Source: Candidatus Enterococcus testudinis
GTDB lineage: Bacteria; Bacillota; Bacilli; Lactobacillales; Enterococcaceae
Length of the DNA: 33,822 nt
Assembly: GCF_002140915.1 (NCBI RefSeq)
Contig: NZ_NGKU01000001.1
Location: forward strand, 1,580,378 to 1,614,199
Reading direction: 5' to 3'
Translations under genes and position numbers: made by a program
Shown: positions 13,181 to 24,768 of the stretch, piece by piece
Layout of the letters: every line of letters starts with the position of its first letter
How positions within the stretch are numbered: position 1 is the first letter of the stretch
The notes under the pieces: model-generated
The model's input: only the letters and a program-made list of their open reading frames with translations
Told to the model about the DNA's origin: nothing
The model's database searches: none

Positions 13181-14020
13181 TCAATGAACTTCAGTCACTG
13201 GATACAGACCGAGCAAGTGAACAGTCCCACCTAATAGAGCAATCTCTTCGAATGCATTGGCAATCAATTGCAACGGTTTGTCGATGACGAGATCAATCAC
13301 AAAGAAATATTCTCCCAAACTGGTCTTTGACGGTCGAGATTCGATTTTACTTAAATCGATCCCTCGCCAGCCGAATGCAGCTAATATTTTGTGCAAGCTT
13401 CCGGGTTGATTGGCAGGCAACGTCACAAAAATCGTTGCTTTATCTGCAGATTCTGTCGAAAGATGTGCTTGTTGCTGCTGCATGACCCAGAAGCGGGTTT
13501 GATTAAAAGAAACATCTTGGATATTCTCTGCTTCTACCTTTAATTGATAAGCGGCAGCTGCTTCTTTCGATGCAATAGCCGCGACAGCTTCATTCGGATG
13601 CTCTTTGACATATAAGGCAGCAGTGGTTGTTGAAGCGACAGCCTCTATCACTGCATGTTCATATTTGCGATTGAGAAAATTGGTACACTGTGCCAATGCC
13701 TGCGGATGAGAAATGATCCGTTTGATTGACCGACCAGTACGCAAGTCATTTTCAGCAACGACTAATTGATGATTGATTGGCAAAATAATTTCTTTTTCGA
13801 TGGATAGCTCGGTTGATTTGAATAATGTATCAATGGTCGCATGCACGGAGCCTTCTAAAGAATTCTCATTTGGTACCACACAGCGGTCAACAACACCATT
13901 GATCAGTGCTTGGATACATAATGGAATGGACGGAAAAGGGACGAGCGTATCATGGACAAATGCTTCCTTTGCTGCTAAATACGTAAAAGAATTCTCTGGA
14001 CCCAAATAACCAACTTGCAT
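13181..14020 (-). CDS. pheA: Prephenate dehydratase
   Basis: 279-residue monofunctional prephenate dehydratase: prephenate to phenylpyruvate, the committed step to Phe. The catalytic domain (about 1-180) opens with VGYLGPENSFTY and contains the conserved TRF motif in NQTRFWVM. The C-terminal ACT domain (about 195-275) has GSLHKILAAFGWRGIDLSKIESRPS, whose ESRPS motif binds Phe in feedback-inhibited enzymes. The start is ATG at 14020 (TAGGTGA five bases upstream), not the GTG at 14029 inside aroK. It is the last gene of the aro operon, two bases after the aroK stop region. Confidence 0.95.
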   Translation of the reverse strand: MQVGYLGPENSFTYLAAKEAFVHDTLVPFPSIPLCIQALINGVVDRCVVPNENSLEGSVHATIDTLFKSTELSIEKEIILPINHQLVVAENDLRTGRSIKRIISHPQALAQCTNFLNRKYEHAVIEAVASTTTAALYVKEHPNEAVAAIASKEAAAAYQLKVEAENIQDVSFNQTRFWVMQQQQAHLSTESADKATIFVTLPANQPGSLHKILAAFGWRGIDLSKIESRPSKTSLGEYFFVIDLVIDKPLQLIANAFEEIALLGGTVHLLGLYPVTEVH

Positions 14021-14021
14021 A

Positions 14022-15823
<1,802 letters not shown>

Positions 15824-16909
15824 CTATTTGATCCGACAAGTATATGTCGTTTTTTTGTTGATCAGCTGTTCGGCCAACAGCAAATCGCTTTGATTTTTGA
15901 AAGAAATCTGCAATACACCATTGATTTCTTCACGGCTCTCCAAAATTTTCAGATTGATTAGGGATAACTGATGCTCACCTAGTAGTCCTGTCACTTCCGC
16001 GATCACACCGGAATAATCCGGAACATCTACGAATAAATCATAAAAAGCAGGAATCGCCCCATTTTGGTGAACAGGTAGTTGATCACGGGTTTCTTTGGCT
16101 GATTCAAAAAAAGTGTAGATGGCGTCTTCGTCCTTCGCTTGCAGCCATTGGGAAACAGTGGACATCCGACTTTGCCACTCGTCGATCATCGCAAGTAATG
16201 CCTGTCGATTGCTTAGCAGAATATCCGTCCACATCCGCGGGTCCGAAGAGGCAATCCGCGTGATGTCGCGAAAGCCGCCGGCTGCCAATTGCTGCGCCCG
16301 TGGATGTGTTTGATTGAAGCTGTCCGCTTGATTGACTAGACCAGAGGCAATGATATGAGGCAAGTGGCTTAGCATACCCGTGATTTGATCATGCTCTTCT
16401 GGCGTCAGGGTAACGTATTTCGCCCGTGTCCCTTGAAACAACACTTCCAACTCTGGCAAACGAGTGGTATCACTAGGGGTAAAAATGTAATAGGCATTTT
16501 CAAACAAATCCCCATTGGCTGCTTGGATCCCTGATTTATGTGAGCCGGCCATAGGATGCCCGCCAATAAAATCGAAGGAAAACTGCTGCGCAAATTGACT
16601 GATTTCTGATTTGGTACTTCCGGTGTCTGTCACCAAGACATTTGGCTTCAGGGGCAGTTGACCCAAACGAGCCAAATAGTTTTTGGTGATTTCCACTGGC
16701 AGTGCCAGCAGAATGATATCGGCTTGAACAGCACCATCATCGAAAGAAGCCGGGACTTCAGCAACGAGTTTTGTTTGACGGGCGATCTCATTTGTCGCAG
16801 GACAATGATCCCAGCCCATCAAATAGCTGTCGGGGTGTTCCTTTTTTATACATGTTGCCAGCGATGCGCCAATCAGTCCTAGACCAGCGATCAAAATTCG
16901 TTGATTCAT
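15824..16909 (-). CDS. tyrA: Prephenate dehydrogenase
   Basis: 361 residues. Oxidatively decarboxylates prephenate to 4-hydroxyphenylpyruvate on the Tyr branch. N-terminal Rossmann motif GLGLIGASLA (9-18), active-site region GGHPMAGSHKSG (about 136-147) and the helical domain with LSHLPHIIA. A C-terminal ACT domain (about 290-361, from FVDVPDYSGVIAEVTGLL) suggests Tyr feedback, as in Bacillus TyrA. GGAG lies 11 bases before the ATG. Confidence 0.95.
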   Translation of the reverse strand: MNQRILIAGLGLIGASLATCIKKEHPDSYLMGWDHCPATNEIARQTKLVAEVPASFDDGAVQADIILLALPVEITKNYLARLGQLPLKPNVLVTDTGSTKSEISQFAQQFSFDFIGGHPMAGSHKSGIQAANGDLFENAYYIFTPSDTTRLPELEVLFQGTRAKYVTLTPEEHDQITGMLSHLPHIIASGLVNQADSFNQTHPRAQQLAAGGFRDITRIASSDPRMWTDILLSNRQALLAMIDEWQSRMSTVSQWLQAKDEDAIYTFFESAKETRDQLPVHQNGAIPAFYDLFVDVPDYSGVIAEVTGLLGEHQLSLINLKILESREEINGVLQISFKNQSDLLLAEQLINKKTTYTCRIK

Positions 16910-16947: not shown

Positions 16948-18114
16948 TTAGTAATGTAATAAATATTCGCGGTATTCCTTGACTGCAGCTTGCAATTCAA
17001 CAAATGAATCACTAGGGAACTTTTCTAACAGCTCATTGGCTACAACAGTGGCCACGACACTTTCGCAAACGACACTTGCTGCTGGGACCGCTGTACTGTC
17101 GGAACGTTCTACACTTGCTTTATATGGCTCTTTGCTATCGATATCGACACTTTGCAAAGGCTTGTATAATGTAGGGATTGGTTTCATCACACCCCGTACC
17201 ACGATTGGTTCACCGTTGGTCATACCACCTTCAAAACCGCCTAGATTGTTGCTGCGACGAGTATAGCCTGATTGTTCATCCCATAAGATTTCATCCATGA
17301 CTTTTGACCCTGGCAAGACACCGGCTTCAAACCCGACGCCAAATTCGGCCCCTTTAAAGGCATTGATACTGACTACCGCTTGGGCAATCTTGGCATCCAG
17401 CTTTTTGTCCCATTGAACGTAACTGCCTAATCCAGCAGGAACGCCGCCTACTAAGACTTCCACGACACCACCGATGGTATCACCATTTTTCTTGGTTTGA
17501 TCGATCAATTGCTTGATCTCTTCTTCAACAGAAGGATCAAGGACGCGCACCTCGGAGGCTTCTGAACGCGCTGCAATCTCTTGGACGGTCAATCCATCAG
17601 GGATCGTTGCTTTGATTCCACCCAGCATGGTGACATGTCCAGCAACAGTAATGTCTAACTCTTTCAATAGTTTCTTAGCGATCGCACCAATAGCGACACG
17701 CATCGTCGTTTCTCTGGCTGAGGAGCGTTCAAGAACGTTGCGTAGATCTTGATGGTGATACTTCATTCCACCTACCAAATCAGCATGTCCTGGTCTAGGA
17801 CGTGCGACACGCCGTAATTTTCGGTCTTTTTCTGGCACTTCTTCAATTGCCATGACTTTGGTCCAATTTTTCCAGTCTTTATTTTCAACGACCAATGTCA
17901 CAGGCGAACCTAAGGTCTTGCCATGACGGATACCGGAAGTGATTCTGACTTGGTCTTTTTCAATCAACATTCGACCGCCGCGACCATAGCCTGTTTGTCT
18001 TCTTGCTAATTCATGATTGATATCTTCTGCAGTCAATGGCATTCCGGCGGGTAACCCTTCGATGATCGTCGTTAATTCTGGCCCGTGTGATTCTCCAGCT
18101 GTAATGTAGCGCAT
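16948..18114 (-). CDS. aroC: Chorismate synthase
   Basis: 388 residues. Converts EPSP to chorismate; needs reduced FMN. Signatures: [18 protein letters not shown] at the N-terminus, [25 protein letters not shown] (about 110-122), RSSARETT and the late [19 protein letters not shown] lies nine bases before the ATG. Follows aroB by 18 bases in the operon. Confidence 0.97.
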
Positions 18115-18132: not shown

Positions 18133-19191
18133 TTATACTAAGTAATGTTTGATTGTTTCTGTTGGAATCGTCACAATTTTGGCTTGTCCGATTGCTTCTA
18201 ATAAGATGATTTTGATTTGATTGCCGCGGGCTTTTTTGTCGTGGGTGATTGCTGTAAACAACTTGGAACGATCCACTTCAGGCACAGCGATCGGCAAATT
18301 GAATTTGCTGAGCAATGCCATCAGTTGCTCCGTGGTTCCTTTAGGTGAAAGGCCGATCTCTTCCGCATGGCGCGTAATCATCACCATACCGATCGCCACG
18401 CCTTCACCATGACTCAGACCACCAAAAGCAGCCAACTTCTCTAAACCGTGGCCAATGGTATGACCAAAATTCAGTGTCAAACGACTGCCATGATCAAAGG
18501 GATCTTCTTCGACAACTTTTTGTTTGACCTTCAGGGTCTCTGTGATGATGTAGGCGGCTTGCGACAGCAAATCTCTTTCGTCCTTTACATCATTTAACGT
18601 TTGCCAGAGCTGGAGATCAGCAATTGCAGCGGACTTGATGATTTCAGCAATGCCTTCTCGAACTCTTTGAATAGGCAATGACGCCAACAGTTCAGGATCG
18701 ATCAAGACCCCTTCTGGTTGAGAAAACGTCCCGACTAAGTTTTTAGCAGATTCGGTATTGACGGCTGTTTTGCCGCCAATACTTGAATCAACTTGGGCCA
18801 ATAAACTAGTAGGAATCTGTAAGAAGTGAATGCCGCGCATATAGGTAGACGCTACAAACCCTGCAAGATCTCCAATCACGCCGCCTCCTAGTGCAATGAT
18901 TCCATCACTGCGGGTCATCCCGAATGCTGCTAATTGGTCATACAACGCGGTCGCTTGCAGCAGCGACTTGCTTTTTTCACCTGCTGGCACGACAAGTAAT
19001 TCGGCATCGAATCCATGAGCTGCTAAAGCAGTGATCAGTGCTTCTCCATATAGTGACGCTACATGGCTATCAGAGATAACAGCGACTCTTTGCGACTGCC
19101 ATAACTGATTGACCCATGCGCCGACTTTTTTGAATGCCCCCGCTTCGATGATGATATCGTATGATTGGTCTTTTAAGTTTATGTGTAACAT
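18133..19191 (-). CDS. aroB: 3-dehydroquinate synthase
   Basis: 352 residues. Cyclises DAHP to 3-dehydroquinate with NAD and a divalent metal. Visible: SDSHVASLYG, the NAD-binding GGGVIGDLAGFVASTYMRG (about 100-118), PTSLLAQVDSSIGGKT and the metal ligands in NFGHTIGHGLE and LSHGEGVAIGM. It sits between aroF and aroC. Confidence 0.97.
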   Translation of the reverse strand: MLHINLKDQSYDIIIEAGAFKKVGAWVNQLWQSQRVAVISDSHVASLYGEALITALAAHGFDAELLVVPAGEKSKSLLQATALYDQLAAFGMTRSDGIIALGGGVIGDLAGFVASTYMRGIHFLQIPTSLLAQVDSSIGGKTAVNTESAKNLVGTFSQPEGVLIDPELLASLPIQRVREGIAEIIKSAAIADLQLWQTLNDVKDERDLLSQAAYIITETLKVKQKVVEEDPFDHGSRLTLNFGHTIGHGLEKLAAFGGLSHGEGVAIGMVMITRHAEEIGLSPKGTTEQLMALLSKFNLPIAVPEVDRSKLFTAITHDKKARGNQIKIILLEAIGQAKIVTIPTETIKHYLV

Positions 19192-19222: not shown

Positions 19223-20242
19223 TTAAAGTGATTTGATTTCTTTCATTGCTTTTTCCATAATGTTGACTTCTTGCATCATTCTCATGTATGTTTTTTCGTT
19301 CAATGATTGCGGACCATCTGACCAAGCATTGGCTGGATCTGGATGGATTTCAACGATCATACCATCAGCACCAGAAGCAACGCCAGCTCTCGCCATTGGC
19401 GGTACTAGATCCCAGATACCCGTTCCATGACTTGGATCCACGATGATTGGGAAATGGCTTAATTTCTTGATGATTGGCACAGCACTTAAATCGAATGTGT
19501 TTCGTGTTGCTGTTTCGTATGTCCGGATACCACGTTCGATAAAGATGACTTCGCTCTTGTCTTGAACAGCAATGTATTCCGCAGCATTCAACCATTCGTC
19601 GATCGTACCAGAGATGCCGCGTTTCAAGCCGATTGGTTTACCAGTTTTTCCGACAGCTGCCAACAATTTGAAATTTTGCATGTTGCGGGCACCGATTTGC
19701 AGGATATCACTGTAAGCAGCAACCATATCGATATGGCCTTCATCCATGACTTCGGTAATGACCTTCATGCCTGTTTCATCGGCGGCTTGACGAATGTATT
19801 TCAAGCCTTCTTCTTCTAATCCTTGGAAAGCGTATGGAGATGTACGAGGTTTGAAGGCACCGCCACGTAAAACCGTAGCGCCTCCTGCTTTTGCAATACG
19901 GGCACATTCGCGAATTTGCTCAAGCCCTTCAATCGAACAAGGTCCTGCCATTGTAACGAAGTTGCCACCACCGATTTTCACACCGTCTACATCAACGACT
20001 GTATCTTGTGGATGAAATTCACGAGATGTCAATTTGTAGGTATTAGAGATACGGATCGCATCCTCTACCCCTTCGTAACTGCGAAATGCAACATCTTGAA
20101 TCAGACGTGTATCTCCTTTTAAGCCAATGACAACTTGTTCTTTTCCTTGGTTGACTTGAACATCTAAGCCTTCTTTTTTGATTCTTGTTACAACAACATC
20201 TACTTGTTCGGCAGTTGCGCCTGGTTTCATAATAACGATCAT
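19223..20242 (-). CDS. aroF: DAHP synthase, type I-beta with N-terminal ferredoxin-like domain
   Basis: 339 residues. First step of the pathway: PEP plus erythrose 4-phosphate to DAHP. Residues about 1-70 form the ferredoxin-like regulatory domain ([15 protein letters not shown]...) that gives Tyr/Phe feedback in Thermotoga-type enzymes. The TIM barrel follows with [34 protein letters not shown], and VDPSHGTG near the C-terminus with metal ligands. AGGA lies nine bases before the ATG. Enzyme-level feedback here would add to the transcriptional control by the aro leader. Confidence 0.95.
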
Positions 20243-20278: not shown

Positions 20279-21148
20279 TTATAGCGTGTCTATTAATGCT
20301 CGGACTTTTTCGATCGGCATTTGTTTGCCTGTCCATAATTCAAACGCTGCAGCGCCTTGATAGAGCAGCATGCTTAAGCCATTTGCGGTTTTGGCACCCG
20401 CCGCTTTAGCATCTTTCAACAATTGCGTCTCACGAGGATTATAAATGACATCGTAGACCGCCAATGTCTCTCTCAATAACGTTGTGTCCTTCAAAGGACT
20501 TACGTCTTCGTTTGGTTTCATGCCAACGCCCGTCGCGTTGACCAGCAGTTGACTTTTGGCTAAAGCATCGGCCAAAGCGCCTTGATCATCTAAATCTTGC
20601 AATGATATACGACAACCCGTTTGTTGGGCTATCTCTTGCAATTTTACGTCGATCACTGGATAAAAATCATCTTTGCGATTAAAGACTTGAATCACTTTGA
20701 CCCCATCTAAAGCAGCCTGACTGATGATTGCTGTTGCTGCGCCACCTGCACCGATAACTGTGATCGTCTCACCGATGATCGATACATCAATGGCATCCAG
20801 TGCGCGCATAAAGCCAGTCCCATCTGTATTGTGTCCAACGAGATGTCCCTGTTGATTCACGATTGTATTGATCGCGCCAATCAAGGCAGCGGCTGGCGAC
20901 AGCTCATCTACCAGAGGTACAGCTGCCATTTTGTGAGGCATCGATAAATTGACACCTAACATATCAAGGGTCCGAATGCTCTCGATACTTGTTGCTAAAT
21001 CTTCTGGCTCAACATCAAAAGCAAGATATATTGCATCCGTCGTCGTTTCTGAAAATGACAAATTGTGCATCGCCGGCGAGATACTGTGTCGGGCTGGCTT
21101 TGCAAATAGTGCCGCTAAACGTGTGTGACCAGAAATCATTTTTTCCAT
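20279..21148 (-). CDS. aroE: Shikimate dehydrogenase
   Basis: 289 residues. Reduces 3-dehydroshikimate to shikimate with NADPH. Motifs: KPARHSISPAMHNLSF (shikimate binding, near residues 17-32), LSMPHKMA with the catalytic Lys, GHNTDGTGF, the NADP loop GAGGAATA and NRKDD. Three in-frame Met codons lie close together. I chose ATG at 21148 because AAAGGA is nine bases upstream of it, whereas it abuts the ATG at 21157. It is the first gene of the operon; its ribosome site begins just after the U-run of leader terminator 2. Confidence 0.95.
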   Translation of the reverse strand: MEKMISGHTRLAALFAKPARHSISPAMHNLSFSETTTDAIYLAFDVEPEDLATSIESIRTLDMLGVNLSMPHKMAAVPLVDELSPAAALIGAINTIVNQQGHLVGHNTDGTGFMRALDAIDVSIIGETITVIGAGGAATAIISQAALDGVKVIQVFNRKDDFYPVIDVKLQEIAQQTGCRISLQDLDDQGALADALAKSQLLVNATGVGMKPNEDVSPLKDTTLLRETLAVYDVIYNPRETQLLKDAKAAGAKTANGLSMLLYQGAAAFELWTGKQMPIEKVRALIDTL

Positions 21149-21167: not shown

Positions 21168-21213
21168 AAAAAAAGATGTCCACCGTAAATTGTCAGAATC
21201 TACAGTGAACACC
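21168..21213 (-). terminator. Leader terminator 2 of the aro operon
   Basis: Seventeen consecutive pairs (21213-21197 with 21191-21175, four G-U), loop CTGAC, then seven U's (21174-21168). It ends only about 20 bases before the aroE start. Its 5' arm can pair instead with the 3' arm of terminator 1. Confidence 0.92.
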
Positions 21214-21224
21214 TTTAAACATTA

Positions 21225-21240
21225 CATATCAGCTGATATG
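21225..21240. repeat. Perfect 16-base palindrome between the two leader terminators
   Basis: CATATCAGCTGATATG is fully self-complementary. It lies in the loop that would be closed by helix 4:5 and could form a small RNA hairpin that helps bring strands 4 and 5 together, or be a DNA operator. No regulator is known from the window. Confidence 0.7.
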
Positions 21241-21247
21241 CGAATAT

Positions 21248-21285
21248 AAAAAATAGCCACTATAGATTTTACGATCTACGTGGCT
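21248..21285 (-). terminator. Leader terminator 1 of the aro operon
   Basis: AGCCACGTAGAT (21285-21274) pairs with ATCTATAGTGGCT (21267-21255), 12 pairs with one bulged A, followed by six U's. Strand 21321-21309, upstream, is nearly identical to its 3' arm and competes for the same 5' arm. Confidence 0.9.
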
Positions 21286-21313
21286 GCGAATTCATTACGA
21301 AATGCCCTAGCCA

Positions 21314-21352
21314 TCATAGATACAAACGTGTAGTTTGCATCCATGTCTTCAT
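21314..21352 (-). CDS. Possible second leader ORF (12 codons) in the aro leader
   Basis: MKTWMQTTRLYL-stop begins 10 bases after the stop of the main leader peptide, has one Trp and one Tyr codon, and ends inside strand 2. Only AGGU lies at ribosome-site distance (21364-21361), so it would depend on re-initiation. A ribosome finishing it would block helix 2:3 and favour termination. Speculative. Confidence 0.25.
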   Translation of the reverse strand: MKTWMQTTRLYL

Positions 21353-21362
21353 GAACACAAAC

Positions 21363-21428
21363 CTATCTAAAATAGCTAAAGTAATATTTATTCAGTTGTG
21401 AGGGGTTTGATTGCAATTGTTTTTGCAT
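21363..21428 (-). CDS. aro operon leader peptide (21 residues, Tyr/Phe-rich end)
   Basis: Short ORF starting at ATG 21428, nine bases after GGAG (21441-21438), about 30 bases from the predicted transcription start. It begins MQKQLQSNPS and ends YYFSYFR-stop: five of the last seven residues are Tyr or Phe, while there is none in the first fourteen. These codons lie in and just before strand 1 of the attenuator. A peptide with this end, position and ribosome site is best explained as the sensing ORF for charged tRNA-Tyr and tRNA-Phe. It would not be found by usual gene callers because of its size. Confidence 0.85.
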   Translation of the reverse strand: MQKQLQSNPSQLNKYYFSYFR

Positions 21429-21463
21429 AATAGTTCGCTCCAAACTGATGTAAGATTGACCTA

Positions 21464-21492
21464 AGTATAGGATTTCTCGTGAAAGTTGTCAA
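21464..21492 (-). promoter_or_regulatory. Sigma-A promoter of the aro operon
   Basis: Minus strand: consensus TTGACA (21487-21492), 17 bases, TATACT (21464-21469). It lies downstream of the trpZ stop. No terminator is visible between trpZ and this promoter, so trpXYZ transcripts may also enter the aro leader. Confidence 0.9.
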
Positions 21493-21558: not shown

Positions 21559-22317
21559 TTAAAGATCATCCTCAAAAAACAATAAAAGTTCTGGTAAGCT
21601 TAGGGCGGCTTTTTCATCCGCAGAAAGATCTTTAACGATTTCCCCTTTGCGTAATAAAATCAAACGATTGCCGTATTTTAATGCATCATCCATTCGATGC
21701 GTGATCATCAAGCAAGTCAGCTGCTGCTCAGCGACTCTATCTGCTGTGATCTGCATCAATTGTTTAGAAGTTTTCGGATCGAGTGCGGCTGTATGCTCAT
21801 CCAAAAGCAAAAGTTTTGGTGTTTGGATGGTCGCCATCAGCAGACTTAATGCTTGTCTTTGACCACCAGATAGATTGCCAGTGGGGGTGTCCAAATGATT
21901 TTCTAAGCCATTTCCAACTTGTTGGCATAATGCGTAAAACGCATCTCGTTGGCTTTGCAATTGCCGCAAATGCAAGTTGCGTTTTTGGCCTCTTTTTTGG
22001 GCCAACAATAAATTTTCAGCCACAGTCATTCGCGGTGCAGTGCCCATTTTAGGATCTTGGAAGACACGGGCCAAATAGCGTGCCCGTTTTTCTTCTGAGA
22101 GATTCGTTACATCTTGATCATCAATCGTGATTTGGCCGCTAGTCAGTGGCAATGTACCAGAGATACTATTGAACAGCGTACTTTTCCCAGCACCGTTGCC
22201 TCCGACTACGGTCACGAATTCACCTGGTTGCAAGGACAAGTCCACCTTGTTCAGCAAGACTTTCTTTTCATGAGGACCGTTGCCGACCACTTTGGTTGCT
22301 TTATTGATCTGTAACAT
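21559..22317 (-). CDS. trpZ: ABC transporter ATP-binding protein (TrpZ-like)
   Basis: 252-residue ATPase. Walker A GGNGAGKST (about 39-47), signature NLSGGQRQAL (about 150), Walker B LLLLDEHTAALD, and switch His in LMITHRMDD. It powers import together with the permease encoded just upstream; its ATG shares one base with that gene's TAA (TAATG), so the two are coupled. Assignment to the TrpXYZ group rests on the substrate-binding and permease partners and the Trp-codon leader upstream. Confidence 0.88.
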   Translation of the reverse strand: MLQINKATKVVGNGPHEKKVLLNKVDLSLQPGEFVTVVGGNGAGKSTLFNSISGTLPLTSGQITIDDQDVTNLSEEKRARYLARVFQDPKMGTAPRMTVAENLLLAQKRGQKRNLHLRQLQSQRDAFYALCQQVGNGLENHLDTPTGNLSGGQRQALSLLMATIQTPKLLLLDEHTAALDPKTSKQLMQITADRVAEQQLTCLMITHRMDDALKYGNRLILLRKGEIVKDLSADEKAALSLPELLLFFEDDL

Positions 22318-23201
22318 TATTCGTCCTCCGTTTCAAAGCCGGTACGCAAGTGCAAGGCTTGTTTTAATTGTGGAATCAGCAGGCAGATCGTCAAGACGAT
22401 AGCTGAGAATATTTTCAGATAGGTTGTATCAAAGCCAGCTTTGATCACAAATAAAATCAGTAATTGATAGATGATACTGCCGATGACAATTGCAATCAAC
22501 CGTTCAACGAGTGTTAGTTCTCCATACAAGACCTCGCCGATAATGATCGAGGCAAGACCGATCACGATGACACCGATCCCTTTGCTGACATCTGCATAGC
22601 CATCATTTTGGGCAATCAACGCACCTGATAAAGCAATCACACCATTGGAGACGATCAAGCCCAAGATTTTCATCCGATCCGTATTGATCCCCATTGATTT
22701 GGCCATTTCTTCATTATCTCCAGTTGCGATGTAGGCCTGTCCGAGGTTGGTATGGAACAAATACAATAGGACACTGCCAATCAAAACGACCATGATCAAG
22801 CCGATGATGACTGTATCATAATAGTTTGGCAAGTGTAAACGGGTAAAAAAGTCTTGGATCTTTGGTTGATTCAACAACGATAAATTTGGTGATTGCATGA
22901 CAAACAGCATCACTGAATTCAGTGCCGACATCACCAAGATGCCCGCTAAGATGACTGGGATTTTGCCTTTTGTATAAAGCAGACCCGTGACACATCCTGC
23001 ACACATCCCTGCCAAAACACCCAGGCAAGTAGCCAATACCGGTGATACACCATGGGTGATTGCTGTCACACAAACAGCACCACCCAGAGGGAAGGATCCC
23101 TCTGTCGTCATATCAGGAAAATTCAAAATCCGATAAGTCATAAAAATACCTAAACCAAGTATGCCCCATAGTAAGCCTTGGCCGATTGCTGAAACGATCA
23201 T
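22317..23201 (-). CDS. trpY: ABC transporter permease (TrpY-like)
   Basis: 294-residue integral membrane protein of the BPD_transp_2 / LivH-like permease type, with about eight hydrophobic segments and the coupling-loop region GDNEEMAKSMGINTDRMKILGLIVSNG (around 175-200). GGAGG lies seven to eight bases before the ATG. It follows trpX by 65 bases and overlaps trpZ. Together the three genes form an importer of tryptophan or related aromatic amino acids. Confidence 0.87.
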   Translation of the reverse strand: MIVSAIGQGLLWGILGLGIFMTYRILNFPDMTTEGSFPLGGAVCVTAITHGVSPVLATCLGVLAGMCAGCVTGLLYTKGKIPVILAGILVMSALNSVMLFVMQSPNLSLLNQPKIQDFFTRLHLPNYYDTVIIGLIMVVLIGSVLLYLFHTNLGQAYIATGDNEEMAKSMGINTDRMKILGLIVSNGVIALSGALIAQNDGYADVSKGIGVIVIGLASIIIGEVLYGELTLVERLIAIVIGSIIYQLLILFVIKAGFDTTYLKIFSAIVLTICLLIPQLKQALHLRTGFETEDE

Positions 23202-23266: not shown

Positions 23267-24319
23267 TTACTCTGCACTTGATGAATCTGTTGTGTCTTCA
23301 CCATTGACCAATGTTGCGTCGTTTTTGATGCTGTCTGGAATCGTGATCCCTAAGAATTCTGCTTGTTCTTCATTGATGATCGTTTCACCATCGCTGAAGG
23401 TATAGATAGGTGTTGTCGCTGGTTCAGATGTACCATCTAAAATTGCAGCCACCATCTTCCCTGTTTCGACACCAATCGTAAACTGATCTTGGCCAACGGT
23501 TGCCAAACCGCCTTGTTCCACCATAGTATCTACTGAGGTGATGATTGGCGTTTTGGTTTTGTTGGCTTCTCCGACAACGGTCTGCATCGCATTTGCAATT
23601 GTATTGTCTAACGGGATGTATATAAAGTCAACTTCTTGTGCCATTACTTGAACTGTTTGGGCAATTTCATTGCTAGAAGGGACAGCATATTTCTTCGTTT
23701 CCAAGCCATTATCAGCAGCCGCTGCTTCAGCTTCTGCAACTTGGTATTTCGAGTTGTCTTCTGTAGAAGAGTATAAGATACCTACTGTTTTTGCTTCTGG
23801 CATCAGTTCAGTCGCTAATTTGATTTGTGCGCCAACAGGTGCTTTATCCGAGACACCGGTGATATTGCCGCCAGGTTGATCCATATCTGCTACCAGATTG
23901 GCACCCACTGGATCAGTGACTGCGCCCAAAACGATCGGCACATCTTGTGTCACATTCGCCAACGCTTGTGCCGCTGGTGTAGCCACACCTACAAGTACAT
24001 CAGCATTTTTATTTAACAACTGTTGGCTCATTGTTGCCAATTTACTTTGATCTGCTTGTCCGTTTTGGAATTCGATCGTCAAGTTATCCCCTTCTGTGTA
24101 TCCGGACTCTTTTAAACCTTCTTTGATTCCATTCGTAATGGCATCTAGCGCTTCATGACTGACATATTGCAAAATCCCTACCGTTTTTTCGGCCTTTTCA
24201 CTTGTGGGCGTCGTAGCGGCCTGATCATTGCCACGGCTCATCCCTAATTGATAGACCAATGTTGCCCCCAAAAATAGTAAAATAACAATAACTGTTGCCA
24301 TTAATCCTTTGTTTTTCAT
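23267..24319 (-). CDS. trpX: ABC transporter substrate-binding protein (TrpX-like)
   Basis: 350 residues, family ABC_sub_bind (PF04392), as in streptococcal TrpX, whose members bind Trp/Phe. It has an N-terminal hydrophobic segment (about 7-25) without a lipobox Cys, so it is probably a membrane-anchored or secreted protein rather than a lipoprotein. The binding fold starts at TVGILQYVSHEALDAI, with VLGAVTDPVGANLV, NITGVSD and a C-terminal Ser/Asp-rich tail. AAAGGGG lies nine bases before the ATG. The long leader with a Trp-codon peptide and tandem terminators supports tryptophan as substrate. Confidence 0.88.
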   Translation of the reverse strand: MKNKGLMATVIVILLFLGATLVYQLGMSRGNDQAATTPTSEKAEKTVGILQYVSHEALDAITNGIKEGLKESGYTEGDNLTIEFQNGQADQSKLATMSQQLLNKNADVLVGVATPAAQALANVTQDVPIVLGAVTDPVGANLVADMDQPGGNITGVSDKAPVGAQIKLATELMPEAKTVGILYSSTEDNSKYQVAEAEAAAADNGLETKKYAVPSSNEIAQTVQVMAQEVDFIYIPLDNTIANAMQTVVGEANKTKTPIITSVDTMVEQGGLATVGQDQFTIGVETGKMVAAILDGTSEPATTPIYTFSDGETIINEEQAEFLGITIPDSIKNDATLVNGEDTTDSSSAE

Positions 24320-24485
24320 CTTTACGTTCCCCTTTGGTTTTCTATTTTAATATGATTGTTTAATTAAAATCATTGCGTGTCATTATCGTGTTTCATTGTA
24401 TGGTGACTACCCTCCCTACGGTCAGCTAGTACTGTTCATCATCTACTCTGCCTTGCTCCGCTAATCAATCGTAGTGATTCACAGC
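24320..24485 (-). other. Untranslated stretch between leader terminator 2 and trpX
   Basis: About 165 bases of leader RNA after the second terminator. It contains GGGAGGG (about 24415) before an ATG with an eight-codon ORF, but the 14-base spacing is too long to convince. No further terminator is seen. Confidence 0.4.
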
Positions 24486-24518
24486 AAAAAAGCAATTGCC
24501 TTTGATTGGGCAATTGCT
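24486..24518 (-). terminator. Leader terminator 2 of trpXYZ
   Basis: AGCAATTGCC (24518-24509) pairs perfectly with GGCAATTGCT (24500-24491), eight-base loop, followed by five more U's (24490-24486). The strongest terminator of this leader. Its 5' arm can alternatively pair with 24532-24523 (8 of 10 positions). Confidence 0.92.
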
Positions 24519-24529
24519 TGTAAGCAAAA

Positions 24530-24556
24530 GCCGCATAGACGCTTGTCCTATGCGGC
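24530..24556 (-). terminator. Leader terminator 1 hairpin of trpXYZ
   Basis: GCCGCATAG (24556-24548) pairs perfectly with CTATGCGGC (24538-24530), followed by only four U's, so it may be a weak terminator or a pause hairpin. Its 5' arm can instead pair with strand 2 (24580-24571). Confidence 0.7.
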
Positions 24557-24641
24557 GTATAATTCAACTACCAGCATAGATACAGCACTTTAGAGGGTTC
24601 TCTAAAAAGTTGTATCTATGGAATGAGGTCCACCAATACAA

Positions 24642-24695
24642 CTATCTACGCCAGATTTGCCATGAATGAGCTTGCAATGGAATAAATAGTGTCAT
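24642..24695 (-). CDS. trpXYZ leader peptide (17 residues, two Trp)
   Basis: MTLFIPLQAHSWQIWRR-stop, starting at ATG 24695 with a near-perfect AGGAGG (24708-24703) seven bases upstream. Two Trp codons (24662-24660 and 24653-24651) in its last six residues sit in or just before attenuator strand 1. Trp is otherwise rare, so this is the signature of a tryptophan-sensing leader peptide. It ends AGA-TAG, like the aro leader peptide. Too short for routine gene calling. Confidence 0.88.
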   Translation of the reverse strand: MTLFIPLQAHSWQIWRR

Positions 24696-24739: not shown

Positions 24740-24768
24740 AGTTTAGCGTATCGATAAAAAAACGTCAA
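24740..24768 (-). promoter_or_regulatory. Sigma-A promoter of trpXYZ
   Basis: Minus strand: TTGACG (24763-24768), 17 bases, TAAACT (24740-24745). Transcription would start near 24733, about 38 bases before the leader peptide ATG. Confidence 0.85.

What the first reader, a model, noticed from the sequence alone, without database searches (positions are those of the whole stretch)
21168..21492. Ribosome-mediated Phe/Tyr attenuator in front of a Gram-positive aro operon
Seen: consensus promoter, a 21-codon ORF with GGAG at nine bases, ending YYFSYFR-stop, and helices 1:2 (17 of 18 positions), 2:3 (12 pairs) and 3:4 (12 pairs plus U6) that exclude each other. Known: enterobacterial pheA and trp leaders work this way, while Firmicutes usually control these genes by T-box or TRAP. 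Inferred: Tyr/Phe starvation stalls the ribosome over strand 1 and allows read-through into aroE. I do not know of a description of this leader.
Basis: partly seen in the sequence, partly recalled or inferred. Interest (0 to 1): 0.93.

Follow-up and report, generated by a model that had tools for sequence, protein, structure and literature searches.

The report
Leader-peptide switch controlling aromatic amino-acid genes
In front of the genes that make phenylalanine and tyrosine, this Enterococcus carries a tiny gene rich in those two amino acids, and sequence comparison indicates that a ribosome running short of them there keeps the downstream genes switched on; related switches with tryptophan, leucine or histidine sit before matching genes in other Firmicutes and had been catalogued as a small RNA or as unexplained riboswitch candidates.

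Summary
Observation confirmed; interpretation supported and extended. The minus-strand leader (about 21457-21168) has a promoter, a 21-codon ORF ending YYFSYFR, exclusive helices and terminators before an aroE-DAHPS-aroB-aroC-tyrA-aroA-aroK-pheA operon. The RNA itself is known: it matches Rfam sRNA_2410, and relatives are in print as riboswitch candidates (trpB motif; by description also gbs1262/gbs2033); none of these texts, as searched, names a leader peptide. Related elements have one: 171 of 172 RF02863 hits (Phe/Tyr; one masked), 71 of 71 RF04312 elements of Lactobacillales (70 Trp, one Phe/Tyr), 46 of 47 Clostridial ones (Phe/Tyr, Leu, His). Codons track the gene behind: His hisS, Trp trpB/trpX, Phe/Tyr aro genes. 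Binding proteins behind Trp leaders carry the Trp-ligand Gln (59 of 59), those behind Phe/Tyr leaders Tyr (79 of 79). Folding with a masked ribosome puts the antiterminator maximum over the cognate codons in Lactobacillales, not in Clostridia. A second terminator follows; strand 4 of the first is complementary to strand 5 of the second, suggesting a relay. A Trp version lies in the window before trpXYZ. No expression data for this leader; the mechanism is inferred. Class: new variant of leader-peptide attenuation.

The parts
21464..21492 (-). promoter of the Phe/Tyr leader, TTGACA-17-TATACT
   Evidence: 11 of 12 matches
21438..21441 (-). Shine-Dalgarno GGAG of the leader ORF
21363..21428 (-). 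leader ORF MQKQLQSNPSQLNKYYFSYFR-stop
21363..21380 (-). strand 1a (last Tyr/Phe codons), pairs with strand 2
21350..21363 (-). strand 1a' at and behind the stop codon, pairs with 1b
21332..21345 (-). strand 1b, pairs with 1a' or with 2 (the latter is P1 of the trpB motif)
21305..21323 (-). strand 2, pairs with 1a, 1b or 3
21274..21285 (-). strand 3, pairs with 2 (antiterminator) or 4 (terminator 1)
21255..21267 (-). strand 4, pairs with 3 or with 5
21248..21253 (-). U-run of terminator 1
21197..21213 (-). strand 5, left arm of terminator 2; 11 pairs with strand 4
21175..21191 (-). strand 6, right arm of terminator 2
21168..21174 (-). U-run of terminator 2
21185..21379 (-). match to Rfam RF02863 sRNA_2410, 75.1 bits, gathering 61
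20279..21148 (-). aroE, shikimate dehydrogenase (start ATG 21148 chosen by its SD; the mechanical ORF starts at TTG 21169)
19223..20242 (-). DAHP synthase
18133..19191 (-). aroB
16948..18114 (-). aroC
15824..16909 (-). tyrA, prephenate dehydrogenase
14525..15814 (-). aroA
14022..14528 (-). aroK, shikimate kinase
   Evidence: best models below their cut-offs
13181..14029 (-). pheA, prephenate dehydratase
24740..24768 (-). promoter of the Trp leader, TTGACG-17-TAAACT
   Evidence: read from the sequence
24642..24695 (-). Trp leader ORF MTLFIPLQAHSWQIWRR-stop, AAAGGAGG before it
24530..24654 (-). strands of the Trp element: 1a 24654-24642, 1a' 24644-24633, 1b 24621-24609, 2 24584-24571, 3 24556-24545, 4 24540-24530
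   Evidence: RF04312 match 24622-24519, 44.3 bits, below gathering 59
24484..24519 (-). second terminator of the Trp element (5 24519-24509, 6 24500-24490, U-run)
23267..24319 (-). trpX, tryptophan ABC transporter binding protein (NF041285, 461.6 bits, cut-off 390)
22317..23201 (-). ABC permease (PF02653)
21559..22317 (-). ABC ATPase (general ABC similarity; listed models below their cut-offs)

Best explanation
It is a ribosome-mediated transcription attenuator that senses the supply of charged tRNA-Phe and tRNA-Tyr. A ribosome translates the 21-codon leader behind RNA polymerase. If Phe or Tyr is short it stalls on the YYFSYF codons: strand 1a is covered, 1a' stays free and holds 1b, so strand 2 is free and pairs with 3; 4 is then free to pair with 5, neither terminator 3:4 nor 5:6 forms and the aro operon is transcribed. 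If both amino acids are plentiful the ribosome reaches the stop codon and covers 1a and 1a'; 1b pairs with 2, 3 with 4 and 5 with 6, and transcription ends at one of two terminators. Without translation the outcome is open: the most stable whole fold ends in both terminators, but in the RNA cut after strand 3 the window's own elements still favour 2:3. Shown by sequence: ORF, codons, helices, terminators, their conservation and the match of codon to gene. Inferred: stalling, read-through, order of folding, relay.
For: Leader ORF with a good SD in 131 of 132 Enterococcaceae RF02863 hits, the window's own included (the other is masked by N), and in 38 of 40 hits outside the family, the last two with a weak SD; strict form 168 of 171 against 0.04% in shuffles, 0 of 172 on the other strand. 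Genes behind, by tblastn: 99 binding protein, 72 aro genes (a few at 27-31% identity), 1 unassigned. Double-change cells with the largest of 100 shuffles in brackets: aro set (62) 1a':1b 9 (8), 1b:2 5 (3), 3:4 18 (11), 4:5 21 (12), 5:6 131 (51); binding-protein set (93) 1a:2 8 (2), 1a':1b 16 (6), 1b:2 9 (7), 3:4 56 (32), 4:5 22 (10), 5:6 112 (42). With a masked ribosome the mean probability of 2:3 in aro leaders is 0.69-0.85 with the A-site at codons -3 to -8, 0.34 at the stop, 0.35-0.37 at -10 to -14; best cognate codon above the stop in 169 of 171 Phe/Tyr and 66 of 69 Trp elements; cognate above other sense codons in 121 of 124 and 57 of 66 genomes. Blocking 1a' lowers 0.79 to 0.50 and 0.62 to 0.25. 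Codon follows gene: one change on a tree of 138 binding proteins, at least 37 in shuffles; ligand residue Gln in 59 of 59 Trp-leader and Tyr in 79 of 79 Phe/Tyr-leader proteins (residues from PMC6816091). In Clostridia His, Leu and Phe/Tyr leaders match gene classes in 46 of 46. Published RNA-seq saw a short and a long transcript at two S. agalactiae elements that by their description are relatives (PMC4448216); sRNA_2410 gave two transcripts on Northern blots (PMC5593968, passages).
Against: Helix 2:3 hardly varies in the Phe/Tyr sets (2 double-change cells each, shuffle maxima 1 and 2), and 1a:2 in the aro set does not exceed its shuffles (1, maximum 1). In the Trp set 2:3 exceeds the shuffles with the window's pairing (22, maximum 16) but not with that of L167 (13, maximum 17), and 4:5 barely does (40, maximum 37). 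RF02863 starts inside the last leader codons (FSYFR), so that part of the conservation is built into the search. Without ribosome 2:3 is 0.72, 0.85 and 0.76 in the three elements of the window's genome, above 0.5 in 55 of 171 Phe/Tyr elements, and at the stop above 0.5 in 27 of 171; in the window's Trp element codons upstream of the Trp codons score as high (0.80-0.93) and only the stop and the two codons before it are low. In Clostridia cognate codons exceed the stop (31 of 45) but not other sense codons (19 of 45). The read-through fold of the window is less stable with 4:5 than with 5:6 (-37.8 against -48.4 kcal/mol), so the relay would have to be kinetic. Folding was at equilibrium on cut RNAs. 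Streptococcal leaders have a weak SD. S. suis trpX is reported to use a T-box (PMC9382623). No expression data for this leader.
Confidence: 0.9

Rival explanations
1. It is a metabolite riboswitch whose aptamer binds an aromatic amino acid or precursor, as proposed for gbs1262/gbs2033 and for the trpB motif.
For: Two published groups classed relatives so (PMC4448216; PMC11109978); short and long transcripts seen by RNA-seq in S. agalactiae.
Against: Does not explain an ORF with SD in nearly every member or codons that follow the gene, including His and Leu. The conserved strands are accounted for by exclusive helices. PMC11109978 itself does not exclude a classic attenuator.
Confidence: 0.04
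2. A trans-acting small RNA (sRNA_2410), made from its own promoter, with the ORF incidental.
For: Rfam files it as sRNA; expressed, two transcripts on Northern (PMC5593968).
Against: A gene of the aro or binding-protein class lies behind 171 of 172 elements by tblastn; two transcripts fit two terminators. A terminated leader could still act in trans as a side role.
Confidence: 0.03
3. A leader-peptide attenuator in which the nascent peptide itself, with the conserved QLN before the cognate codons, helps the ribosome stall, possibly by sensing free amino acid (TnaC-like, recalled).
For: QLN is kept in 143 of 171 Phe/Tyr leaders, with other synonymous codons than the commonest in 32 of the 143; (Q/K)LN also stands before the cognate codons in many Trp, Leu and Clostridial leaders.
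Against: The cognate codons are kept and exchanged with the gene, as tRNA sensing needs; R and S near the end lie in paired strand 1a. QLN is mostly one nucleotide sequence (CAACTGAAT, 111 of 143), so an RNA role is possible.
Confidence: 0.1

Closest known systems
E. coli/Salmonella trp, pheA, his leader attenuators (recalled)
   Same: Short ORF with cognate codons, ribosome-set choice between antiterminator and intrinsic terminator, amino-acid biosynthesis downstream.
   Different: Strands 1a and 1a' around the stop codon plus 1b give a deeper strand series; a second terminator whose left arm pairs with strand 4; found in Firmicutes. Sequences were not compared.
His leader peptides in Firmicutes (PMC2965389, PMC9413887; passages)
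   Same: Leader-peptide attenuators in Gram-positive bacteria, before hisS/hisZ or his operons.
   Different: The passages seen report His only; here Phe/Tyr, Trp and Leu as well, and Clostridial hisS leaders match the trpB-motif model below its gathering score.
Rfam RF02863 sRNA_2410 (PMC5593968)
   Same: The window element is a member by score (75.1 against 61).
   Different: Filed as a small RNA of E. faecium; here read as the attenuated 5' part of transporter and aro mRNAs; 'leader' does not occur in the paper's main text.
Rfam RF04312 trpB motif (PMC11109978) and gbs1262/gbs2033 elements (PMC4448216)
   Same: P1 corresponds to helix 1b:2, the second hairpin to terminator 3:4, with an antiterminator in the right shoulder of P1. 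Identity with the gbs elements is inferred from their description, not from their sequences.
   Different: Proposed there as riboswitches; leader ORF, strands 1a and 1a' and the second terminator lie outside the Rfam model.
T-box riboswitch
   Same: Senses tRNA charging and controls the same kind of genes; reported for S. suis trpX (PMC9382623, passages).
   Different: No T-box match at gathering score in the window; sensing here is through a translated ORF.

Membership tests
Ribosome-mediated (leader-peptide) transcription attenuator | short ORF with ribosome-binding site ahead of the structure | tested here: met
Ribosome-mediated (leader-peptide) transcription attenuator | cognate codons placed so that stalling there favours the antiterminator and the stop codon does not | tested here: met
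   window: 0.94-0.97 at aromatic codons -3 and -5 to -7, 0.69 at Phe -2, 0.40 at the stop; sets. In Clostridia only partly
Ribosome-mediated (leader-peptide) transcription attenuator | mutually exclusive antiterminator and intrinsic terminator | tested here: met
   2:3 itself nearly invariant in the Phe/Tyr sets
Ribosome-mediated (leader-peptide) transcription attenuator | codons match the product or substrate of the downstream genes | tested here: met
Ribosome-mediated (leader-peptide) transcription attenuator | read-through rises on starvation for the cognate amino acid and needs leader translation | not testable with these tools
   no expression data for this leader
Rfam RF02863 sRNA_2410 | covariance-model score at or above gathering | tested here: met
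   75.1 bits against 61
Rfam RF04312 trpB motif | covariance-model score at or above gathering | tested here: not met
   Phe/Tyr element 27.7, Trp element 44.3, gathering 59; 52 of 295 Lactobacillales genomes have a match above it
T-box riboswitch | match to a T-box covariance model | tested here: not met
   only RF02863 reaches its gathering score in the window
Metabolite riboswitch | ligand-binding aptamer that controls termination without ribosomes | not testable with these tools
   would need in vitro transcription
TRAP-controlled leader | series of NAG triplets binding TRAP | not tested
   -

The most novel reading that the evidence does not exclude
The window's Phe/Tyr leader belongs to one modular family of ribosome-mediated attenuators spread over Lactobacillales and Clostridia, in which the sensing codons are exchanged (Phe/Tyr, Trp, Leu, His) to suit the gene behind, while a common strand series is kept; in many members a second terminator is coupled to the first by a 4:5 helix, giving an all-or-none relay. 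The orphan trpB-motif and gbs1262/gbs2033 'riboswitches' and sRNA_2410 would all be such attenuators, and the leader codons would reveal the substrates of unassigned transporters.
Probability: 0.7. Interest if true: 0.88.

Novelty: new variant of a known kind. Interest (0 to 1): 0.82.

Why it matters
It gives a mechanism to RNAs so far listed as a small RNA and as orphan riboswitch candidates (the trpB motif alone has over 900 representatives by its authors' count), so ligand hunts for them may be aimed at the wrong thing. It indicates that classical leader-peptide attenuation is common for aromatic amino acids in Lactobacillales, where T-box and TRAP would have been expected. The leader codons predict transporter substrates (Phe/Tyr for binding proteins like the one at L001, which scores below the TrpX cut-off, for one clade of sodium-dependent transporters and for BrnQ-like carriers), which can be checked directly. 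The coupled double terminator is a design I do not know from the enterobacterial cases.

Tried and rejected
T-box: no match at gathering score in the window. sRNA as sole function: disfavoured by its placement before cognate genes. RF04312 over the whole phylum: 5 of 398 genomes at E <= 0.001; of the three new loci L263 has a Phe leader (..IFFNNHFR), L264 and L265 look by eye like ordinary terminators. Weak RF04312 hits in the window's own genome (L034, L035, L037, L038, L040): no cognate leader, taken as ordinary terminators. Two of 115 matches of the leader pattern in the genome collection (L313, L329) have no ORF and are taken as chance. A first ribosome-mask run used over-long hairpins and was redone. 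Pairing of the SD region with the QLN codons as reason for that motif: only 29% of 72 aro and 7% of 96 other leaders pass p <= 0.05, so not adopted. Fusobacterial members, mentioned in both riboswitch papers, were not reached.

Limits of sampling: elements were found with Rfam models. One search read 132 of the hits, whose printed list was cut. Outside Enterococcaceae I took the 39 best RF02863 hits and one more by hand (L222); of RF04312 the 30 loci returned, the next 20 by score, and 20 picked by hand from lower scores, mostly outside Enterococcaceae. In Clostridia 47 of the 67 hits listed were read. The filters look for the codons themselves and are no evidence alone; one search is the controlled count. 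In Clostridia the gene classes were set up after the leaders had been seen. Covariation sets drop elements without a second terminator (Phe/Tyr) and identical sequences: 62 of 72 aro, 93 of 99 binding-protein, 70 of 71 RF04312-type elements. Sequences are related, so counts and p-values are not of independent events. Organism names were printed for 80 of the 115 stretches.

Full report
WHAT IS THERE. On the minus strand a near-consensus promoter (21492-21464) precedes a 21-codon ORF (21428-21363) with GGAG nine bases before the ATG and the ending YYFSYFR-stop. The genes behind it are aroE, DAHP synthase, aroB, aroC, tyrA, aroA, aroK and pheA, that is, the common pathway plus both the Tyr and the Phe branch, which fits mixed Tyr/Phe codons. 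Strand coordinates are in the parts table; RNAduplex gives 16, 14, 11, 12, 12, 11 and 17 pairs for 1a:2, 1a':1b, 1b:2, 2:3, 3:4, 4:5 and 5:6.

WHAT IS ALREADY NAMED. Rfam RF02863 (sRNA_2410) covers 21379-21185 at 75.1 bits, gathering 61. The family comes from an E. faecium small-RNA study (PMC5593968, passages read), which saw two transcripts on Northern blots. RF04312, the trpB motif, matches weakly (27.7 bits); its authors call it a strong riboswitch candidate, did not test most candidates, and do not exclude a classic attenuator (PMC11109978, passages). PMC4448216 (section 10 read) describes elements before two paralogous ABC operons of S. agalactiae and before aroFBC-tyrA of E. faecium as new riboswitch families, with short and long transcripts in RNA-seq; that these are the same elements is my inference from the description. 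'Peptide' does not occur in its main text, nor 'leader peptide' in PMC11109978. Seven paper searches listed no paper whose title, abstract start or looked-up passages report an aromatic leader peptide in Lactobacillales; the library holds open-licence papers only, so this is not proof of absence. His leader peptides in Firmicutes are known (PMC2965389, PMC9413887; passages).

HOMOLOGUES. RF02863 occurs at E <= 0.001 in 101 of 105 Enterococcaceae genomes and in 158 of 295 Lactobacillales; RF04312 in 160 of 295. Of 132 Enterococcaceae elements read 131 have the leader, mostly ending YFSYFR, the last one being masked. Of 40 hits outside the family 38 pass the SD filter and two streptococcal ones have the ORF with a weak SD. 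RF02863 begins within the last codons, so the FSYFR part is favoured by the search; start, SD and the codons before it are not.

TRP VERSION. RF04312 starts about 20 bases behind the leader stop codon, so the leader is no part of that search. Of the 30 loci, 29 pass the SD filter with Trp near the end, mostly W..WRR; of 40 more, 37 have Trp, two fail that filter and one (L261) has a Phe/Tyr leader, and behind L261 lies the Phe/Tyr-type binding protein, not trpX. With a looser filter all 71 elements, the window's own included, have one, 70 Trp and 1 Phe/Tyr; strict form 68 of 71, shuffles 0.33%. Genes behind are mostly trpX-like, or trpB (L148, L155 and L241 over the TIGR00263 cut-off; L159 and L249 by eye); for L144 and L170 no gene was found in the stretch held, and L141 has a reverse transcriptase. 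The window's trpX exceeds the NF041285 cut-off.

CODON FOLLOWS GENE. On a tree of 138 binding proteins (243 elements, 162 with a hit, 161 long enough, then dereplicated) leader type changes once; shuffled labels need at least 37 changes. The window's trpX is nearest to 3lft and the L001 protein to 6hni; PMC6816091 (passages) reports Trp and Tyr bound in these, and names Gln284 of SP1069 against Tyr279 of CD0873 as a selector of side chains. At that place all 59 Trp-leader proteins have Gln and all 79 Phe/Tyr-leader proteins have Tyr; the window's trpX has Gln. The second selector (Glu263 of CD0873) is not kept: mostly Ser in the Phe/Tyr set, Val in the Trp set.

CLOSTRIDIA. In the family of G710, RF04312 hits (none above gathering) were found in 16 of 79 genomes and in 45 of 225 at order level. 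Of 47 elements read, 46 have a leader: His before hisS or a hisZ-like gene 7 of 7, Leu before one clade of sodium-dependent transporters 6 of 6, Phe/Tyr before another clade 21 of 21, before BrnQ-like carriers 5 of 5 and before PF02653 permeases 7 of 7; one element has neither leader nor gene. The permease leaders are the weakest, with two to four Phe/Tyr codons.

STRUCTURE TESTS. Covariation counts with shuffles and slid controls are (Phe/Tyr; Trp). In the Phe/Tyr sets every helix except 2:3 exceeds its largest shuffle by more than one double-change cell in at least one set; 2:3 has 2 cells in each (maxima 1 and 2). In the Trp set 1a:2 (25, maximum 20), 1a':1b (31, 12), 1b:2 (29, 11) and 3:4 (78, 32) exceed the shuffles; 2:3 does with one pairing scheme (22, 16) and not with another (13, 17). 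A strand that must pair with two or three partners can hardly vary, which is expected of such a switch but is not proof. Second terminators with U-run are present in 162 of 172 Phe/Tyr elements, first ones in 69, and 55 of 71 RF04312-type elements have two or more. Duplex energy of the region before terminator 2 with its left arm averages -13.1 kcal/mol against -7.5 for shuffled arms, p <= 0.025 in 70% of 162.

RIBOSOME POSITION. RNA cut after strand 3 was folded with the bases under a ribosome kept unpaired. In Phe/Tyr leaders the mean probability of 2:3 is high only with the A-site at codons -3 to -8; it is 0.34-0.38 at the stop, 0.38-0.43 without ribosome and about 0.3-0.37 further upstream (codons -10 to -14). 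In the 38 WxxW leaders it is 0.59-0.64 at -3 to -6 and 0.20 at the stop, 0.47 without ribosome; the other 33 have a flatter curve. These are the places of the cognate codons. The window's Phe/Tyr element follows the curve except that it gives 0.72 without ribosome; its Trp element is low only at the stop and the two codons before it. Blocking 1a' in the stalled state lowers 2:3, so 1a':1b contributes. In Clostridia the curve is weak: 0.24 at the stop, 0.29 without ribosome, 0.46-0.48 at -4 to -6, 0.36-0.38 further upstream, and cognate codons do not exceed other sense codons.

JUDGEMENT. The leader works like a classical attenuator and meets the defining features that sequence can test; the starvation response is untested. 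It is a member of RF02863 by score, not of RF04312. The relay and the modular-family reading are inferred.

Noticed in passing
window 24768-24484 (-): Second attenuator of the same kind, Trp leader MTLFIPLQAHSWQIWRR and two terminators, before trpX; the transporter operon ends just before the Phe/Tyr leader.
   Followed up: yes
L001:1400-1760: Third copy in the same genome: leader MLLSTSTPQLNSFYFSYFR before a paralogous binding protein that scores below the TrpX cut-off (327.7 against 390).
   Followed up: yes
L381, L391, L406, L415, L417, L418, L423: Clostridial hisS or hisZ-like leaders with HHH or HHHH match the trpB-motif model below gathering.
   Followed up: partly
L384, L389, L396, L397, L401, L424: Leu leaders (LLLLANL and LLLVAEL types) before one clade of sodium-dependent transporters; predicts leucine transport.
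   Followed up: partly
L385, L410, L419, L421, L422; also L289, L365 by eye: Phe/Tyr leaders before carriers of the branched-chain (BrnQ/livcs) family; predicts an aromatic substrate.
   Followed up: partly
leader codons about -12 to -9 of many elements: A (Q/K)LN motif precedes the cognate codons in many Phe/Tyr, Trp and Leu leaders; synonymous variants occur. Unexplained; possible nascent-peptide role.
   Followed up: partly
L141: Trp leader followed by a group II intron-type reverse transcriptase ORF instead of trp genes (by eye).
   Followed up: no
L217, L222 and streptococcal loci: Leader ORF kept but with a poor Shine-Dalgarno sequence.
   Followed up: partly
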